In this document: one piece after another, positions 29,809 through 58,989 of the stretch | Position numbering within the stretch: position 1 is the first letter of the stretch | Layout: each line of letters opens with the position of its first letter | Assembly: GCF_019048525.1 (NCBI RefSeq) | Contig: NZ_CP077369.1 | Span: forward strand, 62,001 to 126,000 | DNA: 64,000 bases | Direction: 5' to 3' | Source of the DNA: Acinetobacter lwoffii | Lineage (GTDB): Bacteria > Pseudomonadota > Gammaproteobacteria > Pseudomonadales > Moraxellaceae | Position numbers and translations under genes: made by a program | The notes under the pieces: model-generated | What the model was told of the DNA's origin: nothing | Database searches by the model: none | What the model saw: the letters and a program-made list of their open reading frames with translations, nothing else

Positions 29809-31092
29809 ATGTCTATCCTAAGTTGGGACGATTTCGAAGATGATTCGCAAAAACCGGCTGCACCTGAACAGCAGCCTGCGCCCGTCGAGCCGCAAAAAGC
29901 GACTAATTCACAGATGGTATCTGATGCAGGCAACGCATCGCCGGATGTGGCAGCTGCACAACCCCTTAGAGCCACTCAAAACCGAGGATCAAATCCAACC
30001 GATTCGCTGGCAAGAGCATCTGCTTCCCTAGAGCAACTTGATGTTGCTCCAGGTCTGGAAGAGCTTGAAATGGGTGCGCAACGTGTACAAGTTGATGACA
30101 AGGCAATGATCAACTGTCGTGCTGACTTGAACCAGCTTGTACCGTTCAAATACGAATGGGCTTGGCAGAAGTATCTGGACGGATGTGCAAACCACTGGAT
30201 GCCGCAAGAAGTCAACATGAACCACGACATCGCGCTGTGGAAGTCTGAAAATGGCTTGACTGAAGATGAACGTACCATCGTGATGCGTTCACTTGGTTTC
30301 TTCTCGACTGCCGATTCACTGGTTGCAAACAACCTGGTACTGGCGATTTACCGTCATATTACCAACCCTGAATGCCGTCAGTACATCTTGCGTCAAGCGT
30401 TTGAAGAAGCAATTCATACGCACGCTTACCAATACTGTATCGAGTCGCTAGGTATGGATGAAGGCGAAGTCTTCAACATGTACCGTGAAGTACCGTCAGT
30501 GGCACGTAAGGCAGCGTGGGGCCTGAAATATACTCAATCTTTAAGTGATCCTACTTTCAAAACTGGTACCCCTGAAAACGACCAAATCCTGCTTCGCAAC
30601 CTGATCGCGTTCTATTGTGTACTTGAAGGTATCTTCTTCTACTGTGGTTTCAGCCAGATTCTGTCTATGGGCCGTCGTAACAAGATGAATGGTGTTGCTG
30701 AGCAGTTCCAGTACATCCTGCGTGATGAGTCAATGCACCTGAACTTCGGTATCGATATGATCAACCAGATCAAGATCGAAAATCCGGGGCTATGGACGAC
30801 TGAATTCCAGGAAGAAATCATCCAGATGATTCTTGAAGGTACGATGCTGGAAATCGAATACGCACGTGACACCATGCCACGCGGTGTACTCGGCATGAAT
30901 GCTGGCATGATGGAAGAATACCTGAAGTTCATTGCTAACCGTCGTCTGGCGCAGTTAGGCTTGCCTGAACAGTTCGCTGGTGTGAACAACCCGTTCCAGT
31001 GGATGTCAGAAATGATGGACTTGCGTAAAGAGAAGAATTTCTTCGAGACACGCGTAACGGATTACCAAACTGGTGGTGCGTTAAGCTGGTAA
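29809..31092 (+). CDS. nrdB: Class Ia ribonucleoside-diphosphate reductase, beta subunit
   Basis: The diiron-tyrosyl radical subunit partnered with NrdA. It has 427 residues, with an N-terminal Pro/Ala/Gln-rich extension (about residues 10-90) before the ferritin-like core, as in other Acinetobacter NrdB proteins. The [11 protein letters not shown] stretch supplies a metal-ligand Glu and His and the radical tyrosine at the spacing of E. coli E115-H118-Y122. [10 protein letters not shown] supplies the second Glu and His. The C-terminus ([11 protein letters not shown]) is the tail that binds NrdA. The mobile element starts 21 bp after its stop codon. Confidence 0.97.
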
Positions 31093-31113
31093 GGTTTTTT
31101 ACCGTCCGCTGAA

Positions 31114-31153
31114 TGACAGATAATGTGAGATTTTTGACACATATTTCGAGATT
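31114..31153 (+). repeat. Left-end transposase-binding repeats
   Basis: Two related 19-mers start at 31114 (TGACAGATAATGTGAGATT) and 31135 (TGACACATATTTCGAGATT), 21 bp apart. The first is the exact inverse of 58917-58935, and the second resembles the right-end copies at 58805 and 58837. Tandem sites of about 20 bp are typical of TnsB-type ends. Confidence 0.65.
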
Positions 31154-31183
31154 GTTACAAATTTATTTAACAACTCACTAAAT

Positions 31184-31216
31184 AAAAAAATAGAGCCTAA
31201 TGGCTCTATTTTTTTT
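31184..31216 (+). terminator. Rho-independent terminator near the left end
   Basis: The stem AAAAAAATAGAGCC with GGCTCTATTTTTTTT around a four-base loop. It lies inside the element and would stop nrdB read-through into the cargo. Confidence 0.85.
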
Positions 31217-31354
31217 AAATTATGTTCTTAATCTAATTACTTGCTCTTGATTACATACATTAATCTGGTAAATCTATTTCTCATAAATATGGAAATATCA
31301 AAATAAGTAAACTAACAAATATTTTAATTTAAATTCATTGAAATATTTTTAATG

Positions 31355-31386
31355 TACCCAATTTATATTTAAGATTAAATTGGGTA
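31355..31386 (+). promoter_or_regulatory. 11-bp inverted repeat directly before the CD-NTase start
   Basis: TACCCAATTTA and TAAATTGGGTA form a perfect 11-bp stem around a 10-base loop, followed by TTTTTC and the ATG at 31393. It covers the place where a ribosome site would be, and no clear one is seen. It could be an operator, an attenuator-like terminator or a translation-blocking hairpin. Confidence 0.6.
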
Positions 31387-31392
31387 TTTTTC

Positions 31393-32493
31393 ATGGCTAA
31401 AATTAATTTTGATGATAGATTAAAAAGATTAGAGAAAAGGAGAAAAGCTAAAGATCTTAGTTATAACCTATTCGATAGCATAGGAACTGGAGTCACTTCT
31501 TATTCTGAATTTACTTCACTTCAGAATAAACGTGAACTTTGGGAAAATATTTCAACTAAACCATCTATACGCTATTCAATTGGAGCTATGCAAGCAGTGG
31601 ACCAAAGGTATACTGAAATTGGTATTGAAACTGCAAAAAGAATTGAAAACCAACTTAAAACTCGACTGACAAACCATGGATTAGCTACAGAATATAAATT
31701 GCAAGGTTCTGTACCTTTAGATATCCATATTAAGGGAGTCAGTGATGTTGATCTATTAGTTATACATAAAAATCACTATCGCTCAGAAGACTGTACAACT
31801 TTATTAAGAAATGAAGATATAAAAATTCTACAACAATTAAGAAATTCTAGTTTTCATGAGCTAAAGCAAGCATATCCCGCTGTTAAAATTGATAATACTG
31901 GTGGAAAATGCATAAGCCTTACAGGAGGGTCATTACCAAGAGATGTAGATGTAGTCCCATCTCATTGGGTCGAAACGAATGAATATAAGAACAAAGGGTC
32001 TGAATATTTAAGAGGAATAAACGTTTTAGATAAAAAGATCCCTACAACATTTCTAAATTTACCATTTTCCCATATTTATTGGATTAAATTAATTTGCCAG
32101 TATTTAACAGAAGGTTCATTAAGAAAATCCATTCGGCTATGTAAAACTATCAAAGCTGATTTAATTGACGAAGGCTCAAAGATTACACTAAGCAGCTATG
32201 ACCTAGCGTCTGTTATGTACCATGCTAATAGGGATAATTTAAAAAATAGCAAAAATCATTCTCTTGGGATTGTTTTAGAAACCCAAAGGTTTTTGGATTA
32301 TTTATATCACAATCCAAATTATGCAAAATCTTTAGACACTCCTGATGGGACTAGAAAAATTTTTGATTCCGCTGACAAATTAACTTCTCTCACCACACTG
32401 AGTATTGCATTAGATAATTTAGTAAGTGATTTATGTCAGGATTTGGGCTTTTCATCTAAAGAATCACTAAATTTTTTTCCATTATCAATTTAA
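31393..32493 (+). CDS. CBASS-type CD-NTase (cyclic oligonucleotide synthase)
   Basis: A 366-residue nucleotidyltransferase of the cGAS/DncV-like family, which on phage infection makes a cyclic nucleotide messenger. The catalytic pattern is visible: Gly105-Ser106 (LQGSVPLDI), the metal-binding pair Asp118 and Asp120 (VSDVDLLVI) and a third carboxylate at Asp184/Asp186 (PRDVDVVPS), followed by a helical C-terminal domain. The convergent neighbour is a Cap15-type effector, overlapping its last 9 bp, which strongly supports a CBASS role. No Cap2/Cap3 (ubiquitin-like) or Cap7/Cap6 accessory genes are present, so this would be a minimal type I system. The product nucleotide cannot be told from sequence. 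Confidence 0.82.
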   Translation: MAKINFDDRLKRLEKRRKAKDLSYNLFDSIGTGVTSYSEFTSLQNKRELWENISTKPSIRYSIGAMQAVDQRYTEIGIETAKRIENQLKTRLTNHGLATEYKLQGSVPLDIHIKGVSDVDLLVIHKNHYRSEDCTTLLRNEDIKILQQLRNSSFHELKQAYPAVKIDNTGGKCISLTGGSLPRDVDVVPSHWVETNEYKNKGSEYLRGINVLDKKIPTTFLNLPFSHIYWIKLICQYLTEGSLRKSIRLCKTIKADLIDEGSKITLSSYDLASVMYHANRDNLKNSKNHSLGIVLETQRFLDYLYHNPNYAKSLDTPDGTRKIFDSADKLTSLTTLSIALDNLVSDLCQDLGFSSKESLNFFPLSI

Positions 32494-33123
32494 TTTCTTC
32501 CATTCCATTGAGCCAAAAGTTCTTCTACCACTTACATTATAGTATTTGGCGGAAGCACTTTTTGAGTTCTTGTTGAGTTGAAGTTCTACAAAACCTAAAT
32601 GGGTTCGTAGTTCTTTATGATCTAAGTCTTTAGGCTCATTTTTATAACTATATAAAACCTTATATGAATCAATTTCATCATAAATAATGGCTGCTGAAAT
32701 ACTCTCAGAAGTAGAGTATTTAGTTTCCATTCTAATTCTTAGCTTATCCCAAGTTTGAATTATAGTTACTTTACCTTGCCATTCTGAGTTGTTTGATTTC
32801 ACTAACTCATTATCAAGTTCTTGATAGGATGTTTTACCAATACACTCCCATTCACCAGAAATATCAGGGTATTTTAAAAAATGAAATAACAAGTTCCATT
32901 TCCACACCCATTTATCAAATAAAAAGTAACAAGCTAAAAATAATATACCCGTACTTAAACTTGAAATTACAATGTTTTCTAATGGGGAGAGTTCACCATT
33001 AAATTTTAAAAAAATATAGATTACTACCCAAGAAATACCCATGGCTACAACATATATATATCTGCCAGCATGTGACCGATTAAAAGCATTTTGAACGCAA
33101 TATTCATGTCCATTGGTAGCCAT
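32485..33123 (-). CDS. Cap15-like CBASS effector: two TM helices plus beta-barrel domain
   Basis: A 212-residue membrane protein. Hydrophobic helices are at about 22-40 and 49-70. Residues 85-212 are a beta-rich domain with the family pattern YPDISGEWECIG, then a W-x-G-x-V-T-I-I-Q-T-W segment, HLGFVELQL and a final GSMEWKK strand. This is the architecture of the SMODS-associated 2TM beta-strand-rich effector (Cap15), where the barrel binds the cyclic nucleotide and the protein oligomerises to disrupt the inner membrane. It faces the CD-NTase tail to tail with a 9-bp overlap, whereas CBASS genes usually share one operon. It therefore has its own promoter upstream of 33123. Confidence 0.75.
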   Translation of the reverse strand: MATNGHEYCVQNAFNRSHAGRYIYVVAMGISWVVIYIFLKFNGELSPLENIVISSLSTGILFLACYFLFDKWVWKWNLLFHFLKYPDISGEWECIGKTSYQELDNELVKSNNSEWQGKVTIIQTWDKLRIRMETKYSTSESISAAIIYDEIDSYKVLYSYKNEPKDLDHKELRTHLGFVELQLNKNSKSASAKYYNVSGRRTFGSMEWKKLN

Positions 33124-33241
33124 TAATTACCTCTATTAAGTAGCCATTTTTAATAACTATATAGTTAAATTACAAAAAAAGATGTTTCAAATTTGACTGT
33201 TAAAAATTTAACTTTATATCTCTTATTAAATTTTAAACATT
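33124..33241. other. AT-rich promoter region of the Cap15-like gene
   Basis: A very AT-rich gap between the effector start and the next gene fragment. It must contain the effector's promoter; no distinct boxes could be assigned. Confidence 0.4.
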
Positions 33242-33404
33242 TTACAATGGTACAACTAAATTTTGCTTCATCCACTTAAACCCATTCAACACTTCATTTT
33301 TACCAAACCCTTTCTTCTCTTCCGACCAAGCATAAAAATCTTTTAAAAGTAGTTCTTCAGTAATAGATTGCTTGTTCTCAAGCAAACGCAGCCAACATGC
33401 AAAG
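33242..33404 (-). pseudogene. C-terminal gene fragment cut by an IS3-family element
   Basis: An open frame of about 54 codons runs on the minus strand from the insertion-sequence border to TAA at 33242-33244, with plausible protein sequence (LLLKDFYAWSEEKKGFG, ending KQNLVVPL). I do not recognise the family, and it is not the missing end of the HAD gene on the other side of the IS. It looks like the tail of an unrelated gene whose front was removed when the element rearranged. Confidence 0.5.
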
Positions 33405-33443
33405 TGAACCGTACCGGGTTTGTCGGAGACTTTTTTATTTAAG

Positions 33444-34346
33444 TTAGGCCACCTGACCTAACGGGTTAATCTTATCATAGTACATTGCTTCAAACTCAAA
33501 AGGCGATACATAACCCAGTGCACTGTGTACACGCTTTTTATTGAACCAATCTACCCAGTTTAGTGTCGCAAGTTGTACATCTGCTAAACCTTGCCAATCT
33601 GCTTTTAAATATTCAATCACCTCTGTTTTGTATAAGCCATTCACCGTTTCAGCCAGAGCATTATCGTATGAATCACCAGTTGTACCGACTGATGCTCGTA
33701 AATTTGCTGCTTCTAAACGATTGGTATAGCGAATAGAAAGATATTGAACACCTCTATCGGAATGATGAATCACATTCTTTGGCATGCCTCGATCGTGCAA
33801 GGCTTGCTCTAATGCATCGAGCACCATATCTGTATTCATCCGTGTCGATACTTTCCATCCAACAATTGCTCGTGAGAACACATCAATAATAAAGGCGGTA
33901 TAGACCCAGCCTGAATGAGTTTGAATATACGTAAAGTCACTCACCCACAGTTGGTCAGGATGATCAGCATTAAAATTACGTTTCACTAAATCATCTGCTC
34001 TTTTTTGATCATCTTGGCTACGGGTGGTTTGTTTATTCTTACCACGCCAAACACCTTGTATACCTAGCTTCTGCATCAATCGAGCAACTGTACAACGTGC
34101 AATAATATAGCCTTCACGTTTCAATTGTTGCCAGACCTTACGCACACCATATCGACCTGAACTTTCTTTCCAAATTCGTTTAATTTGTTCAGCATGATGC
34201 TCATCATGTAGATCTCGTTTCGCTCGATGTTCTGGATTGTCCGCGAGATCTAAAGTTCGGTAATAGGTTGAAGCTGCGATCGGTAAAATCCTACAAATCG
34301 CATCAACACCATATCGATCTTTATTGTTATGGATGAAATCCACCAT
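33444..34346 (-). CDS. IS3-family transposase OrfB
   Basis: A 300-residue DDE integrase-type transposase subunit. It has an HTH_21-like region (HAEQIKRIWKESSGRYGVRKVW) and an rve core with DDE residues in WVSDFTYI, HHSDRGVQY and the ETVNGLYKTE helix. Its frame continues upstream of the ATG through RPGGARPPTQI into orfA, so the active protein is probably an OrfAB fusion made by -1 frameshifting at the T6 run of the coding strand. Confidence 0.9.
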   Translation of the reverse strand: MVDFIHNNKDRYGVDAICRILPIAASTYYRTLDLADNPEHRAKRDLHDEHHAEQIKRIWKESSGRYGVRKVWQQLKREGYIIARCTVARLMQKLGIQGVWRGKNKQTTRSQDDQKRADDLVKRNFNADHPDQLWVSDFTYIQTHSGWVYTAFIIDVFSRAIVGWKVSTRMNTDMVLDALEQALHDRGMPKNVIHHSDRGVQYLSIRYTNRLEAANLRASVGTTGDSYDNALAETVNGLYKTEVIEYLKADWQGLADVQLATLNWVDWFNKKRVHSALGYVSPFEFEAMYYDKINPLGQVA

Positions 34347-34663: not shown

Positions 34664-34713
34664 CGGGGTAGTCTCTCAGAATATTGACTCTCCGACAAAC
34701 CCGGTACGGTTCA

Positions 34714-35110
34714 CATTTGCATTAATCAAATACTCTTCAGCGATCGCTCTGCGACTTGATGTTGCAACAGCCATTCTAAGTCCAGACTTTCTCAGTCGTT
34801 CTAGCACTTGTACCAATCCTTTTTTAATCGGTACCCCCTGATTTCGTACAAACTCAAGCTCTAATTCGTCTGCACGTTTACGAATTGTCTGATAAGGAAC
34901 TTCTGTTCCATAAATTTTTTGTGCGAGTTGTTCTGCTGTTTTTGCACTTAATCCTAGACATTGCATCAAATAATCATCAGAGAATTCCTGTCCAATGAGT
35001 TCTTGAGAGGCTTGTTTTAATGTTTGAAAGCGTAATCGCTCAGTATCAAACATTGTGCCATCCATATCAAAGATCGCCCCATGGACAGGATAATCATGAA
35101 AAATCAGCAT
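34714..35110 (-). pseudogene. HAD-family phosphatase, truncated by the IS3 element
   Basis: The first 132 codons encode a beta-phosphoglucomutase-like HAD hydrolase. Motif I is intact (AIFDMDGTMFDTE, nucleophile Asp and acid Asp), the cap domain follows, and motif II is present (MAVATSSRR). The sequence then enters the IS at 34713, so motifs III and IV (Lys and the acidic metal ligands) are missing, about 90 residues of the usual 220. The remaining 3' part is not found on the other side of the element. The protein should be inactive. Confidence 0.8.
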
Positions 35111-35476: not shown

Positions 35477-36703
35477 TTAGGAGTTAACCTTATTGCTTAT
35501 CATCGTATTCTGATTTGAATAGGATATGATCAACAAGTAGACCGCCACTGTGACCATCAATATTAAGAGTAAATAAAAAGGTAAGTGAATGCCGAACTGA
35601 TATAGAAAAGTGCTCAGTAAAGGCGCCACAATGAGACCAATCGCTTGAGTAGCTGTACAAATACTTGCCATTTTGACTTGAGCAGCTTGCGTAACAGATT
35701 GAGCCGCCCCTGTGGTAAATGCAGGCAAAAGGCTTGCCACTCCGACCCCATAAAATAAATAACTTATTTGAAACATCCAAATATGGATTGCACTTAAAGA
35801 TAGGATGAGTCCAATAACCATGCTAAACGTACCCACCAATACCAAAGCTTTCAGTTTTAAATGAAGTACTTTTACAATCAGGATCTGAGTAATCACTAAG
35901 CTAAAACCAACAATGAGCATACATTGGGAAAAATAAATCGCACTTTGTTGTGAGCTTAAATGAAAATGGTCTTGAATATAAAAACCTGCCGTCATATTGA
36001 GCGTCACGATAGCCATATAGGTAGTAAATCCTAAAATAAGCCAAGGAATAGCTGGTTTTAATGAAAATGAATGCTCTATTTTTACAGGCTGTTTTTGATC
36101 CAATATTGTGTTTTGTTTACCCTCATCATGTTTAAAATACATTGTGATAATCAAACTAAAAATCACCAATAAAATAACTGCAATCCACATTGGCAATAAA
36201 ATTCCACCGAACAATAACACTGAAGTTAGAAATGGGCCGACGATCATACCTAAACTATTCATCGCACCATACATTGCCATTTTTTGACTGCGTTGTTGTT
36301 CCTCTGTGACATGTTGCATGACATAACTTTGTAGACCTATTTGTGGCATAGCCATAAAACCACCAGTACTTGCTCGACTAATCACCAACAAAGCAAAAAC
36401 TATCATTACGGGTAATGTTTGTTGTATTCCCCAATAAAGAATCGCTGTAAATATAGCCCAAGTAATGGTCATGCCCCAGAAACCATAATTCATTAATTGA
36501 TAAGGAGTCTGTATTTTTTCCCCTCTGGCAATCAGAATAGATGCAATCGCCATACAAATTGCACCCGCTGAAACAATTACTCCGCCCTGTACTTCTGTTA
36601 AGCCAAGCTCACGAATTAATGGGGCAAGTAAAGGTAAAATCATTGAAAAACAAGTACCGTTGGCTAGAGTTGCCCAAGCCAATAATTTAAAATTTTGTTG
36701 CAT
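35477..36703 (-). CDS. actD: MFS transporter of the acinetoferrin cluster
   Basis: A 408-residue major facilitator protein with about 12 hydrophobic segments in two six-helix halves and the central charged loop (KHDEGKQNTILDQKQ). It is last in the eight-gene acbABCD-actBCAD order described for A. haemolyticus, where ActC and ActD are the predicted inner-membrane carriers, one probably exporting acinetoferrin. A hairpin at 36724-36748 separates it from actA, so its expression may be lower than that of the upstream genes. Symbol assigned by position and family. Confidence 0.75.
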   Translation of the reverse strand: MQQNFKLLAWATLANGTCFSMILPLLAPLIRELGLTEVQGGVIVSAGAICMAIASILIARGEKIQTPYQLMNYGFWGMTITWAIFTAILYWGIQQTLPVMIVFALLVISRASTGGFMAMPQIGLQSYVMQHVTEEQQRSQKMAMYGAMNSLGMIVGPFLTSVLLFGGILLPMWIAVILLVIFSLIITMYFKHDEGKQNTILDQKQPVKIEHSFSLKPAIPWLILGFTTYMAIVTLNMTAGFYIQDHFHLSSQQSAIYFSQCMLIVGFSLVITQILIVKVLHLKLKALVLVGTFSMVIGLILSLSAIHIWMFQISYLFYGVGVASLLPAFTTGAAQSVTQAAQVKMASICTATQAIGLIVAPLLSTFLYQFGIHLPFYLLLILMVTVAVYLLIISYSNQNTMISNKVNS

Positions 36704-36723
36704 AGGTAGTATTCATCAAAAGA

Positions 36724-36748
36724 AAAGGCATCTTAATCAGATGCCTTT
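36724..36748 (-). terminator. Hairpin between actA and actD
   Basis: AAAGGCATCT and AGATGCCTTT form a perfect 10-bp stem with a five-base loop. On the coding strand it is followed only by TCTTTT, so it may be a leaky terminator or a processing/stability hairpin within the operon. Confidence 0.6.
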
Positions 36749-36757
36749 ATGATTGGA

Positions 36758-39154
36758 TTAGTATTTAAGTGTATAGCTTAGACCGTATGTACGACCTTGA
36801 GCTGGTAAGCTAGACATAGCACCGTATACAGATTGTGCAACTTGACTAAATACTGTCTTGTATTCAGTATTCCAAACGTTATATACACCAAAACCTAATG
36901 TACCTGAACCGGCTTTAGCATTGGCAATTACATCCATGACAGCATAACCTTTAATTTCACTTGGTAGTTTCAGATCTTTACGATTTTTTTCATCGATTGC
37001 TTTGTAAGCACGCATATCTTCACGTGCTTTATCAGTCCCACCCACAGCTAAAGCCTGAACTCTAAGACCGAAACCATCATTAAATTGCCAATCCGAATAT
37101 ATCATTCCCTTTAATGGAGCAATCCGTGTGCCATCTAATTCTTGCCATTTTCCGTCAGAGTTTTTAAATTGCCCTCTTGTATATGCAATCGTTCCCCCTA
37201 ATGACATACTATCAGTTAGTGGGTAATTAACATTTGCTTCAGCACCATAAATACGTTCATCCGTATCAACAATGTCTATGTTATAAGCAGGAGCACTATT
37301 AAAACGTACGACTTTATCTGAAGTATTATAAAAAGCAGTTACACTTGTATTTAGACCACTATCACCTTGTAAACGCCAACCTAATTCATAGTTATTGACC
37401 TTGATCGGATCAATATTATTACTATTCACAGCAAAATTAGCTGGTACATCTCGAAGCATACGCTGTACATCGGGAATACTAAAACCCTGTGAGAAATTTG
37501 CAAAAACTTGTTGAGTATCGTTCAAATGATATACGGTACCTAAGTTAAATAATGTCGCATTATGTTTAACTTTACCACCTACTAAAGTTTTAGCATCATA
37601 AGGATAATTTAGATCATTTGTTAAAATATCAGCAGGAATAGACTCACGATATGGCGTTGAATCAGAAACTTTACTATCTATCCTTTCATGGCGAATACCA
37701 GCTTGGACATTTAAACGCTCTGATATTTCATAATTACCTTGTAAAAATACACCTAATTTTTTAATTTCTGTGTCTGGTCCAAATTGATATGTTTTATCAG
37801 GCTCAAAATTCAGACCATTACTTGCATAAAACTGATCAAAATTAAATCGACGAGCAGAAGCTTTATCATTTTCATTTTCATAATCTAAACCATAAGTTAA
37901 ACCCAACTTACGATTCGAAATTTCAAAATCTTTTTGTAATGCTGTACGTAAACCCCATACATCAATTTCTGATTCCGACTGTAAAACAGCATATCCTAAA
38001 CGGACAGCTTTCAAAAAATCAGGTGAACGTGGATCAGCATAATTTGGATAAAGTTGTGCTAGTCCAAAATTTAAAGTTCCATGCCCCAGAGGAGAGACAG
38101 TTGGAAACCAACGTCCTTTTTCATTACGATAAAAAGCTTCAGCATTCAACTTCTGTCCCAATATATCTTGGTTTTCATATTGCGTATTAATTACATAACG
38201 CTTTGTTCTAGGTTGAGTGTCTAATTGTAAACCTTTTACAGACTTTAAACTTGGTGAAACTGCTGTTGGAAATAACAGGTTCGCAACATTATAACCAGAA
38301 AGATGACCATAGTCCGCACCATATTCACTATCCTGCTCATCATTATAGTATTGCGCACCAACACTTAGTTTTTGTTTGTCTGCAAACTGCCAGCTCAAAC
38401 GACCACTCACATCAACCGTTTCTGTATCTTGGCGATCCGTTTGTGCAATTTCTGGTCCAATGCGATTACCATGACTGTCTTGGATTTCACCACGTTTGGT
38501 ATAGCTTGCTCCTAAAAAACCACTCCAATCACCTTGATTAAATGATGCAGACTGAAACGCTTCATAAGCTAAAGCATCACTTTTAAAATTATCACCAGAA
38601 GTCACACCGAGTTTGGTTTCAAAGTTTACACCATCACCCGAACCTCTTTTGGTGATAATGTTGATAATCCCCCCAGTAGCACCAGCACCATAGATACTGC
38701 TTGCACCAGATACAACTTCAACTCGTTCAATCATGTCTGGGCTAATACTATTTAGCTGACGTGAACTATCACGTGATCCTGTTTGAGGAACACCATCAAT
38801 CATATATTGCACAGTACGACCACGCATGGTCATACCATAGTTACTGGTCGTACCTGAACTTGGAGTTAAAGATGGAACTAACAAACCTAAAATATCGGCG
38901 GTACTTTTCCCAGCAGCAGCTTGTTTGGCAATATCTTCTTGGCTAATACTGTAAACAGTCCCTGCAATTTCAGCGATACTTTGTGCTGAACGAGTTGCTG
39001 TTACAACAATTGGCGCAAGTTGTGTTGGTTTTTGGACTTCTGCTGCAACATTATTTTGAATCGTGGTATCGATCTCAGTTGTTTGAGCATAAAGCTGGGC
39101 ACTTACTGCCAAGCTTAGAAGTGTTAGTGTTGTCGAAAGTGTATGAACTTTCAT
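36758..39154 (-). CDS. actA: TonB-dependent receptor for ferric acinetoferrin
   Basis: A 798-residue outer-membrane receptor. A signal peptide (about residues 1-23, LTLLSLAVSAQLYAQ) is followed by a TonB-box-like PIVVTATR near 48, a plug domain (about 60-180, with GASSIYGAGATGGIINIITKRG) and a 22-strand barrel ending in an aromatic residue pattern (YGLSYTLKY). Gene order places it as ActA of the acinetoferrin system, the receptor for the ferric siderophore. It is 9 bp downstream of actC, inside the Fur-controlled operon. Confidence 0.85.
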   Translation of the reverse strand: MKVHTLSTTLTLLSLAVSAQLYAQTTEIDTTIQNNVAAEVQKPTQLAPIVVTATRSAQSIAEIAGTVYSISQEDIAKQAAAGKSTADILGLLVPSLTPSSGTTSNYGMTMRGRTVQYMIDGVPQTGSRDSSRQLNSISPDMIERVEVVSGASSIYGAGATGGIINIITKRGSGDGVNFETKLGVTSGDNFKSDALAYEAFQSASFNQGDWSGFLGASYTKRGEIQDSHGNRIGPEIAQTDRQDTETVDVSGRLSWQFADKQKLSVGAQYYNDEQDSEYGADYGHLSGYNVANLLFPTAVSPSLKSVKGLQLDTQPRTKRYVINTQYENQDILGQKLNAEAFYRNEKGRWFPTVSPLGHGTLNFGLAQLYPNYADPRSPDFLKAVRLGYAVLQSESEIDVWGLRTALQKDFEISNRKLGLTYGLDYENENDKASARRFNFDQFYASNGLNFEPDKTYQFGPDTEIKKLGVFLQGNYEISERLNVQAGIRHERIDSKVSDSTPYRESIPADILTNDLNYPYDAKTLVGGKVKHNATLFNLGTVYHLNDTQQVFANFSQGFSIPDVQRMLRDVPANFAVNSNNIDPIKVNNYELGWRLQGDSGLNTSVTAFYNTSDKVVRFNSAPAYNIDIVDTDERIYGAEANVNYPLTDSMSLGGTIAYTRGQFKNSDGKWQELDGTRIAPLKGMIYSDWQFNDGFGLRVQALAVGGTDKAREDMRAYKAIDEKNRKDLKLPSEIKGYAVMDVIANAKAGSGTLGFGVYNVWNTEYKTVFSQVAQSVYGAMSSLPAQGRTYGLSYTLKY

Positions 39155-39163
39155 AATTAGCCC

Positions 39164-41402: not shown

Positions 41403-41429
41403 ATCGAACCTATAAAATGACGAATAAAA

Positions 41430-46502: not shown

Positions 46503-46602
46503 CTGTCGATATCCTCTTTCAAAAGAGTTAATTTGTTTTTCGAAATGTTTTAGGCCTGAAACACATCTTAAGTACAAGGGAGTTTGTAGTTAAGATAGAA
46601 CT

Positions 46603-52015: not shown

Positions 52016-52687
52016 ATGCAATCAAGTTATCTAGAGCAAAAAACTAAACAACTTAATCAAAATTTACTAAGAAAATTTGAAGAAGCTTTTCAAAAACAGA
52101 CTCATGTATCATCAAAATTCATTGGTGAACGTAGAGTAAAATCACGTATAGGTAGTCGTGTATCACTCTTTCCAAGTGTTAAAAATCAAGGGTTAATATG
52201 CCTCGAAAGTAATTTAGAACTAGCCCATGCAATAGCTTTGGAGCGCAATGAAGATGTACTTCAATACAGAACACAAGCAGTTCAGATCTTTATTAATGAT
52301 CGACACTTTATTATTCCCGACTTCATTATAAAAACACTGAATGGATATGAAGTTCATGAAATTAAACCTAATTTAAATACACTTTCAGAAAAAAACATTG
52401 CAAGATTTAATTTAGCAGAAAGTATTTTAAATAGTTACTCGATTAAATTTAGAACTTTTGATCGTAATAATCTTATTTCAAAACAAGACTGTCTTTTATT
52501 AAGTATCAGCTATCAAAGAGCAAATTATAAAAAAATAAATAAAATTGATTTAGAAAAAGCAGACACCCTCATTAGAAATAGAAACTTCAAAAATAAAATG
52601 GATTTATATAAATTACTGAATGCTAATAATTTAGATTTAATGATTGCTGATTATTTTATTTTTTATAAAAAAGCTTTAGGAGTTTAA
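52016..52687 (+). CDS. tnsA: TnsA-type endonuclease
   Basis: A 223-residue restriction-like endonuclease that in Tn7 cuts the 5' ends of the element, giving cut-and-paste transposition. Catalytic residues follow the TnsA pattern: Glu64 (LESNLELAHA), Asp102 (FIIPDFII) and Glu115-x-Lys117 (VHEIKPN), all in the N-terminal domain, with a small C-terminal winged helix expected after about residue 160 for TnsC contact. It ends 2 bp before tnsB. The presence of tnsA separates this element from Tn5053-type relatives that lack it. Confidence 0.82.
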   Translation: MQSSYLEQKTKQLNQNLLRKFEEAFQKQTHVSSKFIGERRVKSRIGSRVSLFPSVKNQGLICLESNLELAHAIALERNEDVLQYRTQAVQIFINDRHFIIPDFIIKTLNGYEVHEIKPNLNTLSEKNIARFNLAESILNSYSIKFRTFDRNNLISKQDCLLLSISYQRANYKKINKIDLEKADTLIRNRNFKNKMDLYKLLNANNLDLMIADYFIFYKKALGV

Positions 52688-52689
52688 TT

Positions 52690-54576
52690 ATGAAAAATAA
52701 TTTTCAATTAAAAATTGGTGATCGATTTAAATATCGTGATGAACTTTATGAAATATGCTATATAGAAAATGAAACTATCCGCTACTCTAACTCCACTAGT
52801 GGAAATATGTACTTTCTTAATGAATATGATTTAATTAATAAAATCTTAAATGGAGATATAAAGTTAACTAATTTAAGCATTCCACAATTTCACAAAAATA
52901 AAGCTCTGACAATTGAGGAAATTTTCAAGTATCTTAACTACGTTTTTTCAAACAAAATTCCATGTTCGACCAAGTATTTGAAAATTGCAATTATAAATAT
53001 AACCAAAGAAAATCCTAATCTTAGAAAAATATCTGCAAGCACTTTGGCACGGTACATAAAGATATATCGAGATAACTCAGATTCATTTCATGGTTTTTAT
53101 CAAGGAGCTGGTGGAAACAGAAGTTTAAGATTCCCGATTGAAATTGAGGAAATTATTAATGAAGTTATTTCTGATTTCATTAAAGAAAGAGAAAATTTTA
53201 GTCCAAGTGATGCTCATGTAATTATTAAAGATCGAATATTATCACTTAACCTAAATGCTACAATACCGTCTGAACGAACTATAGCTCGGCGTTTTGAGAG
53301 ACTTGATCCCTATATTGTATTTAAGAATAAAAATGGAGCAAAAGAAGCAAGTAAAAAATTTAAAGCATCAGGTCAGAGCTTAGTATCGCCTGGTTTACTC
53401 GCAATAGTTCAAATGGATACCCATGAGATTGATTGCATCATATTAGATAAAAATGGGAATGTACTTGGTAGACCAGAACTTTGCATTGCGATAGATATCT
53501 ATACAAGAGCTATAGTAGGTTGGCACTTATGTATGCTACCTCCCTCAGCAACAAAAACATTACTTACACTTAAAAATATGTTGATGAGACCTCATCTCGA
53601 CAAAACAGGAGGACTTCCAACAGTAATAATCCCAGACAATGGTTGCGAGTTTAATAATAATGCTTTAGCTAATTTTTGTAATAATTTTAATATTACTAAG
53701 TCAGAATCACAGCCATACTCTCCCAATAATAAAGCTCATATTGAAAGTTTTTTTAGATCATTAAATATGAGCATTATTCATAAACTTAAGGGTACTACAT
53801 ACTCATCACCAGTCCATAGAGGAGATTATGACTCTGTAGGAAATGCCTGTTATACACTAGATATATTAAGAGATTTAGTGAATGAATGGATTGAGAACAT
53901 ATATCATAAACGAATTCATTCAAGGACAAATCAAAGACCAGAAAAAATGTGGCAAGAAGCGTCTAAAATATTTCCTGTTTTAACCATTCCTGAATTAGAA
54001 ATTGAAAGAAAATGTCGGACTGTGTTCCGATATAGAATCAACAAAGGACAAATAAACTTAAAAGGTCTAAGATATAAATCTCAGGCTCTCGCCACATTAA
54101 ATTATCATTTCAAAGATAAAGTCACGATTTATGTTAATCCACTAGATTTAAGCTCTATTTATATACAAGACCCATTTGATAAAGATAATCTGATTCAAGC
54201 AGATTCAATATATCCTGAGGCTACTAAAGATTTAACTTTAGCTGAATGGTTAGAAGCTAAGGAAATATTGCGAGAGAAGTATAAATGTAACCCTGATGAG
54301 ATTAAAAATGAAGAAATTTTATATCTTGCTCGTTTAAATTTTCTAGAAAAAATACAAAAGCTTAATCGAAGAAATAAACGTTTTAGACAGGTTAAGAATG
54401 ATCTGCCCTCAATGATTACGAGCTTTGAAAGACACTTAAATTTAGTAACATTAAGTGAGAAAGATAAAGCTATCAAAACACAGTGCAACTCAAAAACAAC
54501 CCCTTCCCTTACATTTGACAATTTACCTCCAGATTTAACTGATTTTTTCTATGAGGAGGTAAATTTTGATGAATAG
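52690..54576 (+). CDS. tnsB: TnsB/TniA-type DDE transposase
   Basis: A 628-residue transposase of the retroviral-integrase type that binds the end repeats and joins the 3' ends to target DNA. HTH domains occupy the first 200 residues. The catalytic core has Asp243 (IVQMDTHEID), Asp316 (VIIPDNGCEF) and Glu352 (KAHIESFFRSL). A C-terminal beta-barrel (about 440-500, Mu-transpos-C type) and tail follow. It overlaps the start of tnsC. The gene is very AT-rich and appears intact. Confidence 0.92.
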   Translation: MKNNFQLKIGDRFKYRDELYEICYIENETIRYSNSTSGNMYFLNEYDLINKILNGDIKLTNLSIPQFHKNKALTIEEIFKYLNYVFSNKIPCSTKYLKIAIINITKENPNLRKISASTLARYIKIYRDNSDSFHGFYQGAGGNRSLRFPIEIEEIINEVISDFIKERENFSPSDAHVIIKDRILSLNLNATIPSERTIARRFERLDPYIVFKNKNGAKEASKKFKASGQSLVSPGLLAIVQMDTHEIDCIILDKNGNVLGRPELCIAIDIYTRAIVGWHLCMLPPSATKTLLTLKNMLMRPHLDKTGGLPTVIIPDNGCEFNNNALANFCNNFNITKSESQPYSPNNKAHIESFFRSLNMSIIHKLKGTTYSSPVHRGDYDSVGNACYTLDILRDLVNEWIENIYHKRIHSRTNQRPEKMWQEASKIFPVLTIPELEIERKCRTVFRYRINKGQINLKGLRYKSQALATLNYHFKDKVTIYVNPLDLSSIYIQDPFDKDNLIQADSIYPEATKDLTLAEWLEAKEILREKYKCNPDEIKNEEILYLARLNFLEKIQKLNRRNKRFRQVKNDLPSMITSFERHLNLVTLSEKDKAIKTQCNSKTTPSLTFDNLPPDLTDFFYEEVNFDE

Positions 54577-55055
54577 TAATAAAAACATTGAAACTCTCTC
54601 TAAGTTACGGAACTTCATTTGTCATCATTCAGACTTCTCAAAAGCTTTAACGTCTATTGATGAGTGCATGCAAATGAGTTACATGGAAAATCGACCTATT
54701 GGCTCCTTGTTACTTGGTGCAGGGGGTGTAGGTAAATCTACTATATGTAAGCTTATTAAAAGCAGACATAAGCCTTATAAATGTATAGAGGATAACTTTG
54801 AGAAGTTAATAGTACCGGCTTTTTACTTTCCTGTTCCTTCACCAATCACTATTAAGAGCCTAGCCATTCGAATGCTTGAAGAGCTAGGATGTACAGATCA
54901 TAGAGGTACAAGTGAGCAATTAAACTATCGATTACGCATTCTCTTAAAAGAATGTAAGACACAACTTATCATGCTGGATGAATTTTGATGTGGTTCTAGG
55001 ATTTTAGACCACGCCTATAAGTGATAATCTACTCCCCAATAAGCATGGGAAATGC

Positions 55056-55379
55056 TTGTTTTTGGAGTCAACCATGACACGAAGAAAACGTCGTAATCAT
55101 TCAGCAGAGTTTAAAGTTAAAGTTGCTCTCGCAGCAATTAAAGGCGACCACACACTCGCTGAACTTTCTACTCAATTCGATTTACATCAAAACCAAATCA
55201 TCGATTGGAAAAATCAACTGCTTGAGCAATCAGTCAATATTTTTTCACGACCAACAGCACAACAAGAACCAGAGATTGACCTCAAAGCTCTACATGCCAA
55301 GATAGGACATCAGGCATTGCAAATTGATTTTTTAGAAGGTGCGCTCAGAAAAATAGGGCAGCTGAGCGGCAAAAAATGA
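55056..55379 (+). CDS. IS3-family transposase OrfA
   Basis: About 100-107 residues (likely ATG at 55074, MTRRKRRNHSAEFKVKVALAA) with a helix-turn-helix of the HTH_Tnp_1 type (DHTLAELSTQFDLHQNQIIDWKNQ) and a short coiled coil. An A-rich slippery stretch at the end (GGCAAAAAATGA) overlaps the orfB start, the usual frameshift point. Confidence 0.88.
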   Translation: MFLESTMTRRKRRNHSAEFKVKVALAAIKGDHTLAELSTQFDLHQNQIIDWKNQLLEQSVNIFSRPTAQQEPEIDLKALHAKIGHQALQIDFLEGALRKIGQLSGKK

Positions 55380-56203
55380 TCGATAAGACCCATCAACTTT
55401 CGGTACGACAACAATCGCAATTGATTCAAATCAATCGCAGTACGTTGTATTACAAGCCCAAAGAGATTTCATCAACTGATTTGAGTTTGATGCGTCTAAT
55501 CGATGAAATTCATCTCGACTACCCATTTATGGGCAGTCGAATGATACGAGATATGCTACAGCGTCAAGGACATCAAATAGGTCGGCGTAAAGTCCGACGT
55601 TTAATGCGCTTGATGGGAATACATGCCTTGTATCCAAAACCCAATACCAGTAAGCCTAATCTTGCACACCGTATTTTCCCATATCTGTTGAAAAACATGG
55701 TCATCGATCACTCTAATCAAGTCTGGTGTACAGATATCACGTACATTCCTATGGCTAAAGGCTTTGTCTATCTGTGTGCAATTATAGATTGGCATAGTCG
55801 TAAAGTACTGGCTCATCGAGTATCGATCAGTATGGAAACAGACTTTTGCATAGATGCGTTGCAAGAAGCAATTGTGAAATATGGTTGTCCAGAGGTGTTT
55901 AATACAGACCAAGGCAGTCAATTCACAAGCGAGGCATTTTTGAATGAGTTAAAATTGCGAAATATCCGTATCAGTATGGATGGGAAAGGACGATGGATGG
56001 ATAATGTGATGATTGAGCGTTTATGGCGCAGCGTGAAGCATGAGGAAGTCTATTTGAAGGCTTACGATACGGTTAAACAAGCGAAACAATCAATTGCTGA
56101 ATATTTGGATTTTTATAACATGATACGTCCTCATTCAAGTTTGAATAAGGCAACACCGGATGAATTTTATGATCAACATTTACTAAAAGTAATGGCAGCA
56201 TAA
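55376..56203 (+). CDS. IS3-family transposase OrfB
   Basis: A 275-residue DDE transposase subunit with an HTH_21 region (YPFMGSRMIRDMLQRQGHQIGRRKVRRLMR) and an rve core: Asp in WCTDITYIPM, Asp in FNTDQGSQFTS and Glu in MIERLWRSVKHEE. The C-terminal IRPHSSLNKATPDEFY is typical. It is probably made as an OrfAB fusion by frameshifting. Confidence 0.92.
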   Translation: MIDKTHQLSVRQQSQLIQINRSTLYYKPKEISSTDLSLMRLIDEIHLDYPFMGSRMIRDMLQRQGHQIGRRKVRRLMRLMGIHALYPKPNTSKPNLAHRIFPYLLKNMVIDHSNQVWCTDITYIPMAKGFVYLCAIIDWHSRKVLAHRVSISMETDFCIDALQEAIVKYGCPEVFNTDQGSQFTSEAFLNELKLRNIRISMDGKGRWMDNVMIERLWRSVKHEEVYLKAYDTVKQAKQSIAEYLDFYNMIRPHSSLNKATPDEFYDQHLLKVMAA

Positions 56204-56802
56204 TTTAAATATTTAGAGCGGATTTATCACTTATAAAACTGAATTGAGTGGTCTAATTAACGGAACCACATTATTTCATCATATTTATAGCTCGAGTGCC
56301 CAAAAGAATAAAACATCTGAAAATGTAGCCAACTGGATTAAAACATTAGCTGATGAAACTAAAATATCTATATGTTTGGTCGGGTTACCTACTATTCAAG
56401 ATAATCTTTTTATTGACAGTCAACTAGCACGCAGATTTTCTTGTGTCTTACAACTCAATCCTTTGACCTTAAATAAATATGATCAATCTGGGACACTTAT
56501 GCCCTTTTTGAAACAGACCTCTCTATACATAGCAAAGAACTTCAATCTTAGCTTTGATCCCGAAATTTTCTCAAAAGATTTATCTAAGCGCATATTTTTA
56601 GCCACTAGTGGCTTCCAAGCCTATGTCATGCAGCTGATACATCAAAGCTGTCTGAATGCACTAAGCGATAATCGTACGGTTGTTTCAATGAATGACTTTC
56701 ATACAGCTTATGCATTAAAAAGTATCTTATATAAACCCATGACTAACAAAGATCTTTTTTTACTTAATCCCTCTCAAATTACTGAAATCTTAATTTAATA
56801 TC

Positions 56803-58812
56803 ATGAAAAAATTATCTCTTTCTCATACTCCAATCCCATTTTCTGATGAATTTTTAGCAAGCTTTCTCCTTAGAGCTTCATATATAAATGGCTATGAATT
56901 TCCTGAACAAATGCTAAACAGCGCAGGTATTTCCATATATAAAAAATCTTACGAGGCATTATTTACCAATGAAGATAAGTTTAAGGAAGTTATTGAACAG
57001 TTGGGACTTTCAGATGACTTACTAGATCTGGTAATAAAAAAGACCCCTCCAACATTTCAAAATTTCTTCTGGACAAAAACTCAAGTAATTCATCGTAAAT
57101 TACTTAATATTGGCCTCCATAAATTTTGCTCATCCTGTTTAGAAGATAAGGGTTATTGGAAGAAAAATTGGTTATTAACCCCCTTAACAGTTTGTCTAGA
57201 TCACCATATTGATTTGATAGAAAAATGCCCTGAATGCGATAATCCATTAGAGACTAGCCGAAAATCATTATTTGAATGTTCAACTTGTACTTTTAATTTA
57301 CGTAAGAGCCAAAAGCAGCAATCTACACTAGAAGATATCCAGATTAATACATGGTTCTTAGATAGCTTTCAAGGGACTGATAAAACTTTTAATGAAAATT
57401 TTTTTGATATCTGGATAGCTTTATGCGAGTACTTTTCTAACTTAGAAATATTTAAAAACCGATCTTATATTTTAAATTTATCCCATGAATATTTTCATAA
57501 TGAGGATAAATTTATTTCTAGCCTTATAAATGAAATCAAAAGCAACCTAGATTATGCTCATCCAAGAATTCAACTTCTTCCCTTTTTAGAAAATAAATCT
57601 AGATTTAAACCTATTCTCGATGAAATCCTAAGTTATTTTAGAGATTATAACTCTCCTTCCTCAAAATGTATTCAACGGAAATTTAATAAGAGAGAAGCTA
57701 CTCATATACTTGGGGTTAGTTTTGCAGCATTTCATAAAAGACTGAAGGCGGGAGTTTTATATCACGATAAACTCAATGTAAGTGATAGAACTAATTTTCT
57801 TGCTTCTATACTTGAGGAATGGCTAATCAATGAAAAGAAAAATATCAATGGCACCTATACATATCATCGTCCACCACCACAAGCCGATGAATCTAATGAT
57901 TATTTTTCTATTCCAGAAATTATGGAAATACTAAATATTAACAATCATAATGCACGTTTATTTCTTAAAATACCAGATATTCCAGCCACAAAAAAATATG
58001 TCCATCGTTATACACAGTCTTGTCTTTCCAAAAAATTTGTTAATGATTTTCATAAAAAATATATTTTTCTAAGTCCACTTGCTGACTACTTGGACGTTTC
58101 GCATCTCACACTGAGAGCCAAGCTTTCAAGTTTAAAAATTGAACCTATATATATAAACAAACTTTATCCGGCATATTATGCAAGAAAAGATATTCAGCAT
58201 TTAGATAAGTCAATGATTGAAAATATAGTTACTTATAAAAATAATTCAGGGCGTAAAAAAGTTGGAACTGTAGATAAGAGTAAATGTGATGCTTATGTAA
58301 GCCTAAATGAAGCATCTCAACTTCTAGGTATTTCCTCATTACAAACAGCTCAACTTATTCAACATAAATGGCTTAAAGTAGAAAATTTAGAGATACGCCC
58401 GTATCGTATCCCAAGAAGAAGTATCGACAAATTAATTCAACAAAAGAATGACCCTACGTATGTTGATATAGAGGTGGTACTCAATGGATTAGATTGCTCA
58501 TATGACCAACTTGAAAAAAATTGGATTATGACAGGTCATTTAAAACTTCGACATATTGGATATTGGCGGTCCTTCTCCAAAACTGAGTTTGATAAAGCCA
58601 TGAAGATTCACCAAGAGTATTTTACAGCTTCAGAGGCTAATGACTATTTAGGTATGCATCGCACGCATATGACTAATCTAGTAACTCAGGGATTAATTAA
58701 GCCTAAATTTCATGGCAATAAATTTTATTCGGTCAGACTATTCTTACGGGAGGACGTTGATAAATTACTCGAAGCCGGTTATGGCTATAAAAGTAATCAA
58801 AAAAAATCTTAA
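56803..58812 (+). CDS. tniQ: TniQ/TnsD-family target-selection protein
   Basis: A 669-residue protein with the TniQ N-terminal domain and its zinc ribbon pairs: Cys109/Cys112, Cys131/His134, Cys142/Cys145 and Cys159/Cys162. The rest includes several predicted helix-turn-helix segments (for instance NKREATHILGVSFAAFHKRLK near 296, LNEASQLLGISSLQTAQLIQ near 504, and TASEANDYLGMHRTHMTNLV near 608), which makes it similar in plan to TnsD, the site-specific DNA-binding targeting factor of Tn7. The target is presumably a chromosomal attachment site, possibly the end of nrdB. Its last codons overlap the first right-end repeat. Confidence 0.82.
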   Translation: MKKLSLSHTPIPFSDEFLASFLLRASYINGYEFPEQMLNSAGISIYKKSYEALFTNEDKFKEVIEQLGLSDDLLDLVIKKTPPTFQNFFWTKTQVIHRKLLNIGLHKFCSSCLEDKGYWKKNWLLTPLTVCLDHHIDLIEKCPECDNPLETSRKSLFECSTCTFNLRKSQKQQSTLEDIQINTWFLDSFQGTDKTFNENFFDIWIALCEYFSNLEIFKNRSYILNLSHEYFHNEDKFISSLINEIKSNLDYAHPRIQLLPFLENKSRFKPILDEILSYFRDYNSPSSKCIQRKFNKREATHILGVSFAAFHKRLKAGVLYHDKLNVSDRTNFLASILEEWLINEKKNINGTYTYHRPPPQADESNDYFSIPEIMEILNINNHNARLFLKIPDIPATKKYVHRYTQSCLSKKFVNDFHKKYIFLSPLADYLDVSHLTLRAKLSSLKIEPIYINKLYPAYYARKDIQHLDKSMIENIVTYKNNSGRKKVGTVDKSKCDAYVSLNEASQLLGISSLQTAQLIQHKWLKVENLEIRPYRIPRRSIDKLIQQKNDPTYVDIEVVLNGLDCSYDQLEKNWIMTGHLKLRHIGYWRSFSKTEFDKAMKIHQEYFTASEANDYLGMHRTHMTNLVTQGLIKPKFHGNKFYSVRLFLREDVDKLLEAGYGYKSNQKKS

Positions 58813-58935
58813 CTTATGTGTCAGAGATTCTCAGAAAATCTTAACTTATGTGTCAAAACCTCGTTAAGATTGAATGTCAAAAAAACTAATAAATAATTGA
58901 TTTATTTAGTTAAATAAATCTCACATTATCTGTCA
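58805..58935 (-). repeat. Right-end transposase-binding repeats
   Basis: Direct repeats of AATCTTAACTTATGTGTCA at 58805-58823 and 58837-58855 (identical, 32 bp apart), a partial copy ending TGTCA at 58878, and AATCTCACATTATCTGTCA at 58917-58935, which is the exact inverse of the left-end sequence at 31114. The first copy includes the tniQ stop codon. Confidence 0.7.
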
Positions 58936-58951
58936 TTTAACGCCGTCACGC

Positions 58952-58988: not shown

Positions 58989-58989
58989 T

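What the first reader, a model, noticed from the sequence alone, without database searches (positions are those of the whole stretch)
31393..33123. Two-gene CBASS-like defence pair in convergent (tail-to-tail) arrangement
The plus-strand gene has the CD-NTase signature (Gly105-Ser106, Asp118/Asp120, Asp184/186). The minus-strand gene has the two-TM plus beta-barrel plan of Cap15. CBASS genes are normally co-directional in one operon; here the stop codons overlap by 9 bp and each gene has its own promoter. Convergent transcription could let the two mRNAs interfere, giving a built-in limit on a toxic effector. The system sits inside a Tn7-like element, so it may be spread as cargo.
Basis: partly seen in the sequence, partly recalled or inferred. 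Interest (0 to 1): 0.78.

Follow-up and report, generated by a model that had tools for sequence, protein, structure and literature searches.

The report
Tail-to-tail CBASS pair on a transposon
This looks like a two-gene bacterial anti-phage alarm (a signal-making enzyme and a membrane-breaking effector) whose genes face each other with overlapping ends, an unusual layout that has stayed the same in related bacteria while, in a few of them, a different signal-making partner took the same place.

Summary
Window 31393-32493 (+) encodes a clade-E-type CD-NTase with its catalytic residues; 32485-33123 (-) encodes a Cap15 two-TM beta-barrel effector; the stops overlap by 9 bp. It is a two-gene, type I-like CBASS. 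The layout is the unusual part. Where both genes were found together, 40 of 40 non-Acinetobacter plasmid records and 4 of 4 viral contigs are co-directional, effector first; 8 of 8 Acinetobacter plasmid records, and all 8 Moraxellaceae genomes where Cap15 sits beside this cyclase, are convergent. On the effector tree the convergent rows form one clade (100/100) with one change of orientation. In that clade two effectors face, also tail-to-tail (gaps 1 and 4 bp), a DACNG-DACNH-diadenylate-cyclase-like protein instead of a CD-NTase: partner changed, layout kept. New variant of a known kind. What the layout does is inference; decoupling of the two genes, easing partner exchange, is my preferred functional reading, a neutral inversion about as likely.

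The parts
31393..32493 (+). CD-NTase (CBASS oligonucleotide cyclase, clade-E type), 366 aa; G105-S106, D118, D120, D186
   Evidence: PADLOC PDLC00772 4.1e-130; PDB profile hits 6wt9 4.7e-48, 6wt8 3.6e-31, EfCdnE and four more; invariant residues in 7 homologs
32485..33123 (-). Cap15 effector (two TM helices plus cyclic-dinucleotide receptor beta-barrel), 212 aa
   Evidence: Pfam PF18153 2.6e-41 and PF23471 2.9e-11; PADLOC 2TM effector PDLC00686 2.6e-69; PDB 7n34 1.8e-26
32485..32493 (.). Tail-to-tail overlap of the two stop codons (9 bp); homologous convergent junctions range from a 33-bp overlap to a 4-bp gap
   Evidence: Sequence; junction table; ORF-based baseline of convergent junctions
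31107..31133 (+). Left terminal inverted repeat of a Tn7-like element, 25 of 27 identical to the right end
   Evidence: 2 matches with up to 3 mismatches, 0.00 expected in 100 shuffles
31102..31106 (.). 5-bp target site duplication CCGTC, left copy
   Evidence: site without the element in L081 and L077
58916..58942 (-). Right terminal inverted repeat of the Tn7-like element
58943..58947 (.). 5-bp target site duplication CCGTC, right copy
52016..58812 (+). Transposition genes of the element: TnsA-like, TnsB-like (rve, Mu-transpos_C), TniB in two pieces on either side of an IS3-type element (55056-56203), TniQ
   Evidence: Pfam
29809..31092 (+). nrdB, the chromosomal gene beside which the element sits (not part of the system)
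   Evidence: Pfam PF00268 1.3e-92

Best explanation
A two-gene, type I-like CBASS. Shown from sequence: a clade-E-type CD-NTase with its catalytic residues and a Cap15-type two-TM beta-barrel effector, adjacent, tail-to-tail, as cargo at the left end of a Tn7-like transposon. Inferred from the families: on phage infection the cyclase makes a cyclic dinucleotide, this binds the Cap15 barrel, Cap15 multimerises in the inner membrane and breaks it, and the cell dies before the phage is released. Best reading of the trees: the convergent layout arose once, most simply from an effector-first co-directional operon, in the Moraxellaceae lineage, and both genes then descended together. Inferred with less confidence (about 0.35): the layout gives each gene its own transcription, frees the pair from the tight stop-start coupling of the operon form, and makes the effector usable with another synthase; in two genomes a DAC-type protein occupies the cyclase's place in the same tail-to-tail position.
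For: Family and PDB-sequence matches. Catalytic residues invariant in seven homologs. Orientation: 8 of 8 Acinetobacter plasmid records with both genes convergent, 40 of 40 others co-directional; 4 of 4 viral contigs with both genes co-directional; one E. coli locus opened, co-directional with an 8-bp overlap. Effector tree of 24 rows: convergent clade 100/100, one orientation change, two partner changes. Cyclase tree: convergent cyclases one clade, 100/98, with the same branching of window, G008 and G615 types as the effectors. DAC-paired convergent effectors L039 and L040 lie in the convergent clade. Intact Cap15 beside a frame-broken cyclase (G119) and Cap15 with no recognised synthase beside it (G665, Psychrobacter plasmid) suggest that the effector is tolerated without its signal, as expected if the signal activates it. 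Cap15 and its activation by cyclic dinucleotide: PMC10686824 and PMC12657230, passages seen.
Against: No phage challenge, product assay, expression data or structure model exists here. The signal molecule is unknown. That the DAC-paired effectors are nested among the cyclase-paired ones has support 93/86, and the alternative (cyclase-paired rows as one clade) is not rejected (p-AU 0.0998). Co-occurrence is not strict (G258). The G119 frame break is in a draft contig and could be a sequencing error. A third layout exists in the wider Cap15 family: a shorter CD-NTase ahead of the effector on the same strand (G159, G698, G485, G527). The decoupling idea rests on one orientation change and one exchange inside the clade.
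Confidence: 0.82

Rival explanations
1. The convergent layout is a regulatory device: overlapping 3' ends of the two mRNAs, or colliding polymerases, limit effector expression until infection.
For: Stops overlap by 9-33 bp in all four distinct cyclase-paired convergent types. Among 23 distinct convergent junctions (ORFs of 150 aa or more, loci of 8 kb or more), the 7 in which a Cap15-family gene faces a synthase or CBASS gene lie at -33 to +4 bp, the other 16 at +21 to +1934 bp, including 4 Cap15-family genes facing other neighbours at +59 to +1725. No terminator-like site was reported in 31090-33450 (0 found, shuffle mean 0.9) and only two weak inverted repeats lie near the junction, so read-through into the opposite gene is plausible.
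Against: Synonymous identity in the last 30 codons exceeds that of the gene body in only 4 of 12 comparisons. Overlap length and sequence vary, and the DAC-paired cases do not overlap. The co-directional relatives are equally tight, so tightness alone needs no antisense function.
Confidence: 0.15
2. The layout has no function: a single neutral inversion was fixed in a mobile ancestor and spread by plasmids and transposons.
For: One orientation change on the tree; the pair is identical at DNA level in G008, G039, G097, G022 and CP101888, which shows recent spread.
Against: The layout survived large divergence (convergent-clade effectors 44-67% identical to the window's), the stops stayed close, and a different synthase took up the same position.
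Confidence: 0.4
3. Panoptes-like logic: the synthase works constitutively and its product holds the effector off; loss of the signal triggers killing.
For: Some Moraxellaceae relatives of the effector sit behind mCpol-like genes; one of these lies beside a nearly identical transposon end (L045). PMC12657218 and PMC12657230 (passages) report inhibitory logic in this effector family.
Against: The window effector groups with CD-NTase-paired Cap15 and away from the mCpol-paired ones on starred branches. Intact Cap15 persists beside a frame-broken cyclase (G119, draft contig) and with no recognised synthase beside it (G665, pA11BP3), which would be harmful under inhibitory logic unless another signal is present.
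Confidence: 0.05

Closest known systems
Type I-B CBASS of Staphylococcus schleiferi (CdnE03 + Cap15; PMC10686824, passages seen)
   Same: Two genes, clade-E CD-NTase plus Cap15 effector
   Different: Described there as a two-gene operon; here the genes converge with overlapping stops. The cluster within clade E was not assigned here.
Co-directional Cap15-CdnE pairs on plasmids (L036-L038, L067-L075)
   Same: Same cyclase and effector families (about 30-46% identity), same two-gene content
   Different: Effector first, same strand, mostly with a stop-start overlap or a gap of a few bases
Panoptes (mCpol OptS + 2TM-beta OptE; PMC12657218 and PMC12657230, passages seen)
   Same: Effector of the same family
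   Different: mCpol synthase ahead of the effector on the same strand, inhibitory signalling, separate effector branch
DS-2 (phospholipase + cGAS + DAC; PMC13092281, passages seen)
   Same: A DAC protein joined to a CBASS-type set; the G073, Citrobacter and Gluconobacter loci here resemble it
   Different: DS-2 keeps a CD-NTase; in G081 and G693 a DAC-like protein faces Cap15 and no CD-NTase of the window's family or of PDLC00794 was found in the (draft) genome
Tn7-family transposons of Acinetobacter such as Tn6171 (PMC8190619, passages seen)
   Same: TnsA/TnsB/TnsC-like/TnsD-TniQ genes, terminal inverted repeats, 5-bp duplication, siderophore cargo
   Different: The element here lies beside nrdB, not glmS, and starts CGCTGAATGACAG, not TGT

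Membership tests
Type I CBASS | CD-NTase with GS motif and catalytic Asp residues | tested here: met
Type I CBASS | Adjacent cell-killing effector with a cyclic-nucleotide receptor domain | tested here: met
   PF18153 and PF23471, PDLC00686
Type I CBASS | No Cap2/Cap3, HORMA/TRIP13 or type IV accessory genes beside it (definition recalled) | tested here: met
   Neighbours are nrdB on one side and an IS3-type transposase and a HAD/MtlD-like fragment on the other
Type I CBASS | Usual, not defining: co-directional operon | tested here: not met
   Opposite strands, 9-bp overlap
Type I CBASS | Signal synthesis and anti-phage protection | not testable with these tools
   Needs bench work
Cap15 (2TM-beta) effectors | Two N-terminal TM helices plus beta-barrel receptor | tested here: met
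   By sequence; 7n34 matches residues 74-207. Both structure prediction jobs failed, so the fold was not modelled.
Cap15 (2TM-beta) effectors | Ligand-driven multimerisation and membrane disruption | not testable with these tools
   Stated for Cap15 in PMC12657230 (passages)
Panoptes | mCpol synthase partner | tested here: not met
   Partner is a CD-NTase
Tn7-like transposon (carrier) | TnsA, TnsB, TnsC/TniB and TniQ genes | tested here: met
   TniB is in two pieces around an IS3-type insertion
Tn7-like transposon (carrier) | Terminal inverted repeats and 5-bp target duplication | tested here: met
Tn7-like transposon (carrier) | Ends 5'-TGT...ACA-3' as in Tn6171 | tested here: not met
   Ends read CGC... 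and ...ACG; Tn6171 text

The most novel reading that the evidence does not exclude
The tail-to-tail Cap15 gene is a plug-in receptor cassette: once flipped away from its cyclase it became independent, and its synthase has been exchanged across the stop-to-stop junction. The convergent DAC-Cap15 pairs (G081, G693) would then be two-gene defence systems driven by a diadenylate cyclase with no CD-NTase, distinct from CBASS, Panoptes and DS-2.
Probability: 0.4. Interest if true: 0.72.

Novelty: new variant of a known kind. Interest (0 to 1): 0.55.

Why it matters
CBASS modules are usually described as operons. A conserved convergent form that keeps its layout while changing its synthase shows that gene order is not a fixed part of the system, gives a natural test of whether effector and cyclase need coupled expression, and points to a DAC-Cap15 pairing whose signal should be directly testable (c-di-AMP). 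On print: a search for 'convergently transcribed' with CBASS and one for 'opposite orientation', 'effector gene' and CBASS returned no paper; 'convergent' with CBASS and CD-NTase returned nine, of which I looked up the word in two, both unrelated uses, and did not open the other seven; 'DACNG' returned none. The library holds open-licence papers only, so this is weak evidence of absence.

Tried and rejected
Phage records: tblastn of the cyclase found no match. Viral contigs: the effector query and the effector alignment A1 gave no relative; the cyclase alignment A2 gave 7. Class-level samples: cyclase model in 2 of 369 genomes (own and G258), effector model in 3 of 369 (own, G485, G527); little added. 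Genome contigs: 1 relative, the G119 organism, Acinetobacter sp. CFCC 10889. My first reading that the Tn7-like genes 20 kb away belonged to a separate element was dropped once sites without the element and the matching ends were found. Junction as a conserved RNA element: no support. Nucleotide specificity from the (R/Q)xW motif (PMC10442399, passages) was considered; I did not align the motif's position, so no product is claimed. A phmmer of the G073 DAC protein against PDB found nothing, and Pfam's DAC model did not match the G081 protein; its DAC identity rests on full-length alignment with the G073 protein, which does match DAC (1.5e-8), and on shared DGT and RGxRYNS motifs (reading these as the DGA and RHR motifs of diadenylate cyclases is recalled).

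Full report
What is there. The plus-strand protein (366 aa) matches PADLOC's CBASS cyclase models (best PDLC00772, 4.1e-130). A profile of seven homologs matches seven PDB sequences: 6wt9, 6wt8 (STING-associated CdnE), EfCdnE, 6e0m and 6e0k (sharing entries with 6E0N and 6E0L, which PMC10442399 calls EmCdnE and RmCdnE), 7x4f (cyclic dipyrimidine nucleotide synthase) and ClCdnE. That all seven are clade E is partly recalled (6wt9, 7x4f). G105, S106, D118, D120 and D186 are invariant in the seven homologs; D184 is not. The minus-strand protein (212 aa) carries the Cap15 receptor and Cap15 TM domains and matches the solved Cap15 barrel over residues 74-207. The stops overlap by 9 bp.

Is the layout special? 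On plasmids, 52 records hold the cyclase. The effector is in 71 records, of which together list 66. On that basis 48 of the 52 have the effector within 5 kb: 8 of 8 Acinetobacter records are convergent and 40 of 40 others co-directional with the effector first (in 2 of the 40 the genes are 1.4-1.5 kb apart); 3 had no effector row listed (one of them the ninth Acinetobacter record, a cyclase fragment) and in 1 the genes are far apart. The records are not independent: six of the eight Acinetobacter plasmids show the same identity values, one (NZ_CP125670) has the length of the G022 contig, and the others include 14 Klebsiella and 8 Bradyrhizobium records. In the genus search 6 of 175 genomes have the cyclase and all six are convergent with Cap15. 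Of seven viral contigs with the cyclase, four also hold the effector, all co-directional and effector first; in the other three the contig ends at the cyclase. In E. coli 3 of 5426 genomes match over 62 bases; the one opened is co-directional. Outside this cyclase type, a shorter CD-NTase stands ahead of a Cap15-family gene on the same strand in G159, G698, G485 and G527.

Cap15-family genes of the family Moraxellaceae. PF18153 is found in 22 of 348 genomes. By neighbour: 8 convergent with a CdnE of the window's type (G000, G119, G008, G022, G039, G097, G615, G694); 2 convergent with a DACNG-DACNH-DAC-like protein (G081, G693); 1 co-directional behind a CD-NTase and a DAC protein (G073); 4 behind an mCpol-like gene (G068, G015, G041, G669; the label rests on one weak PADLOC match, 4.3e-5 in G068, and similarity of the others to it); 2 behind a short CD-NTase (G159, G698); 1 facing the JAB gene of a DncV-type CBASS operon (G132); 4 with no partner recognised (G665, G683, G627, G543). 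DACNH occurs in 3 of 348 genomes, each time beside Cap15.

Trees. With 36 effectors, the mCpol-paired ones separate from the window's group on starred branches. With the 24 nearer rows, the 11 convergent or lone rows of this group form one clade at 100/100; orientation changes once and partner type twice on the tree, lone rows not counted. The two DAC-paired convergent effectors join the A. baumannii 19.6-kb plasmid effector at 93/86. Forcing the cyclase-paired rows together is not rejected (p-AU 0.0998), so what is firm is that the DAC pairs belong to the convergent clade, not that they are nested inside it. Forcing all three DAC-paired effectors together is rejected (p-AU 1.5e-7), so the pairing of DAC with Cap15 arose more than once. 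The cyclase tree shows the convergent cyclases as one clade (100/98) among co-directional ones, with the same order of window, G008 and G615 types; that tree has several long branches and should be read with care elsewhere. The direction of change (co-directional to convergent) is the simplest reading, since the convergent clade lies within the co-directional rows, but the roots are midpoints.

The junction. Overlaps are 9 bp (window, G119), 12 bp (G008 type), 12 bp (G615 type) and 33 bp (A. baumannii plasmid), with gaps of 4 and 1 bp for DAC. Among 23 distinct convergent junctions in the loci of 8 kb or more, counting ORFs of at least 150 aa only, the 7 in which a Cap15-family gene faces a synthase or CBASS gene lie at -33 to +4 bp; the other 16 lie at +21 to +1934 bp. 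This is a rough baseline from loci chosen around these genes. Synonymous identity in the last 30 codons is above that of the gene body in 4 of 12 comparisons and below in 8 (12-21 codons each). The terminator scan found none (shuffle mean 0.9) and the two promoter-like sites are inside the cyclase gene; the scan's rules miss the evident GAGCC/GGCTC hairpin with a T run behind nrdB (31184-31215), so it is not a strong negative. A separate look at 32360-32620 gave only two weak inverted repeats. An 11-nt perfect inverted repeat lies just before the cyclase start (31355-31386); by eye it is not shared by the more distant loci.

The carrier. In relative G173 (L081) the stretch after nrdB continues at once, and in G052 (L077) after about 0.4 kb, with the sequence that in the window starts near 59.0 kb, ahead of and in the TonB receptor gene. 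The stretch in between is bounded in the window by 27-bp inverted repeats (25 of 27 identical) at 31107-31133 and 58916-58942, with CCGTC on both outer sides, 27,836 bp in all. A 3-mismatch search of the window finds only these two places, with none expected. The right part carries TnsA-, TnsB-, TniB- (split) and TniQ-type genes. The same left end, with no mismatch, precedes the same CBASS at nrdB in G119. With 1-4 mismatches it follows nrdB in G043, G080 and G158; the frame next to it in G043 has weak GmrSD restriction-domain matches (below Pfam's cut-offs) and that of G158 none. In G068 a 2-mismatch copy of the end lies about 150 bp from an mCpol-Cap15 pair (L045). The G008-type CBASS lies near a TniQ gene, with one 471-aa frame in between. 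So this end of the element looks like a cargo slot that takes defence genes, in line with the cargo survey PMC8649781 (passages).

Mechanism and limits. Signal-activated membrane disruption by Cap15 is stated for relatives in PMC10686824 and PMC12657230 (passages). Here it is inference from homology. Intact Cap15 beside a frame-broken cyclase (G119, a draft contig, so an assembly error is possible) and without a recognised partner (G665; the Psychrobacter plasmid record of L035) speaks against an effector that must be held off by its own synthase. G665 has no cyclase of this family in its genome, and the plasmid is absent from the cyclase and DAC hit lists; other signal sources were not all searched. 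Why the genes converge is open: decoupling that permits partner exchange (about 0.35), a neutral accident (about 0.4) and antisense control (about 0.15) are my estimates.

Relation to print. Joining a DAC protein to CBASS is known: DS-2 has a phospholipase, a cGAS and a DAC whose catalytic residues are needed, and 15 of 30 DAC homologs lay with a CBASS (PMC13092281, passages). The Citrobacter and Gluconobacter loci and G073 fit that description, with patatin or Cap15 as effector. The convergent DAC-Cap15 pairs without a detected CD-NTase (two cyclase queries, draft genomes) do not appear in the passages I saw. The 2015 survey of such systems by Burroughs and colleagues (recalled) is not held, nor is the 2023 DAC survey cited by PMC13092281, so an earlier mention is possible.

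Noticed in passing
window 31102-58947: A Tn7-like element of 27.8 kb beside nrdB with 27-bp inverted ends and a CCGTC duplication; related left ends with other cargo follow nrdB in three other Acinetobacter genomes (G043, G080, G158).
   Followed up: yes
window 35477-46577: Cargo of the same element includes what looks like a hydroxamate-type siderophore set: two IucA/IucC synthetases, a lysine/ornithine monooxygenase, an acetyltransferase, two MFS transporters and a TonB receptor.
   Followed up: partly
window 54566-56798: The TniB gene of the element is in two pieces on either side of an IS3-type insertion, so this copy may no longer move by itself.
   Followed up: partly
window 34676-35110: 144-aa HAD/MtlD-like reading frame that matches only positions 1-132 of a 683-position bifunctional mannitol-1-phosphate dehydrogenase/phosphatase model, next to an IS3-type element: probably a fragment.
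   Followed up: no
window 46824-48198: An ISL3-type transposase gene split into two overlapping frames, followed by signal peptidase II and cation-efflux genes.
   Followed up: no
window 58952-58990: Just outside the right duplication lie GACACATAAGTTGTCATT-like repeats, also seen after nrdB in some other species; they look like leftover ends of other elements at the same site.
   Followed up: partly
L039 5368-7116 and L040 3248-4993: DACNG-DACNH-DAC-like proteins facing Cap15 tail-to-tail; in L039 (G081) the gene on the other side of Cap15 is a defence-type reverse transcriptase (UG5-nitrilase).
   Followed up: partly
L053 4406-5579: In G132 the JAB gene of a DncV-type CBASS operon and a distant Cap15-family effector also overlap tail-to-tail, by 8 bp.
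   Followed up: no
L045 about 5538-5561: An mCpol-like gene with a Cap15-family gene lies beside a nearly identical Tn7-like end in another Acinetobacter.
   Followed up: partly
window 31355-31386: 11-nt perfect inverted repeat followed by TTTTT directly before the cyclase start codon; possible regulatory hairpin or operator.
   Followed up: no
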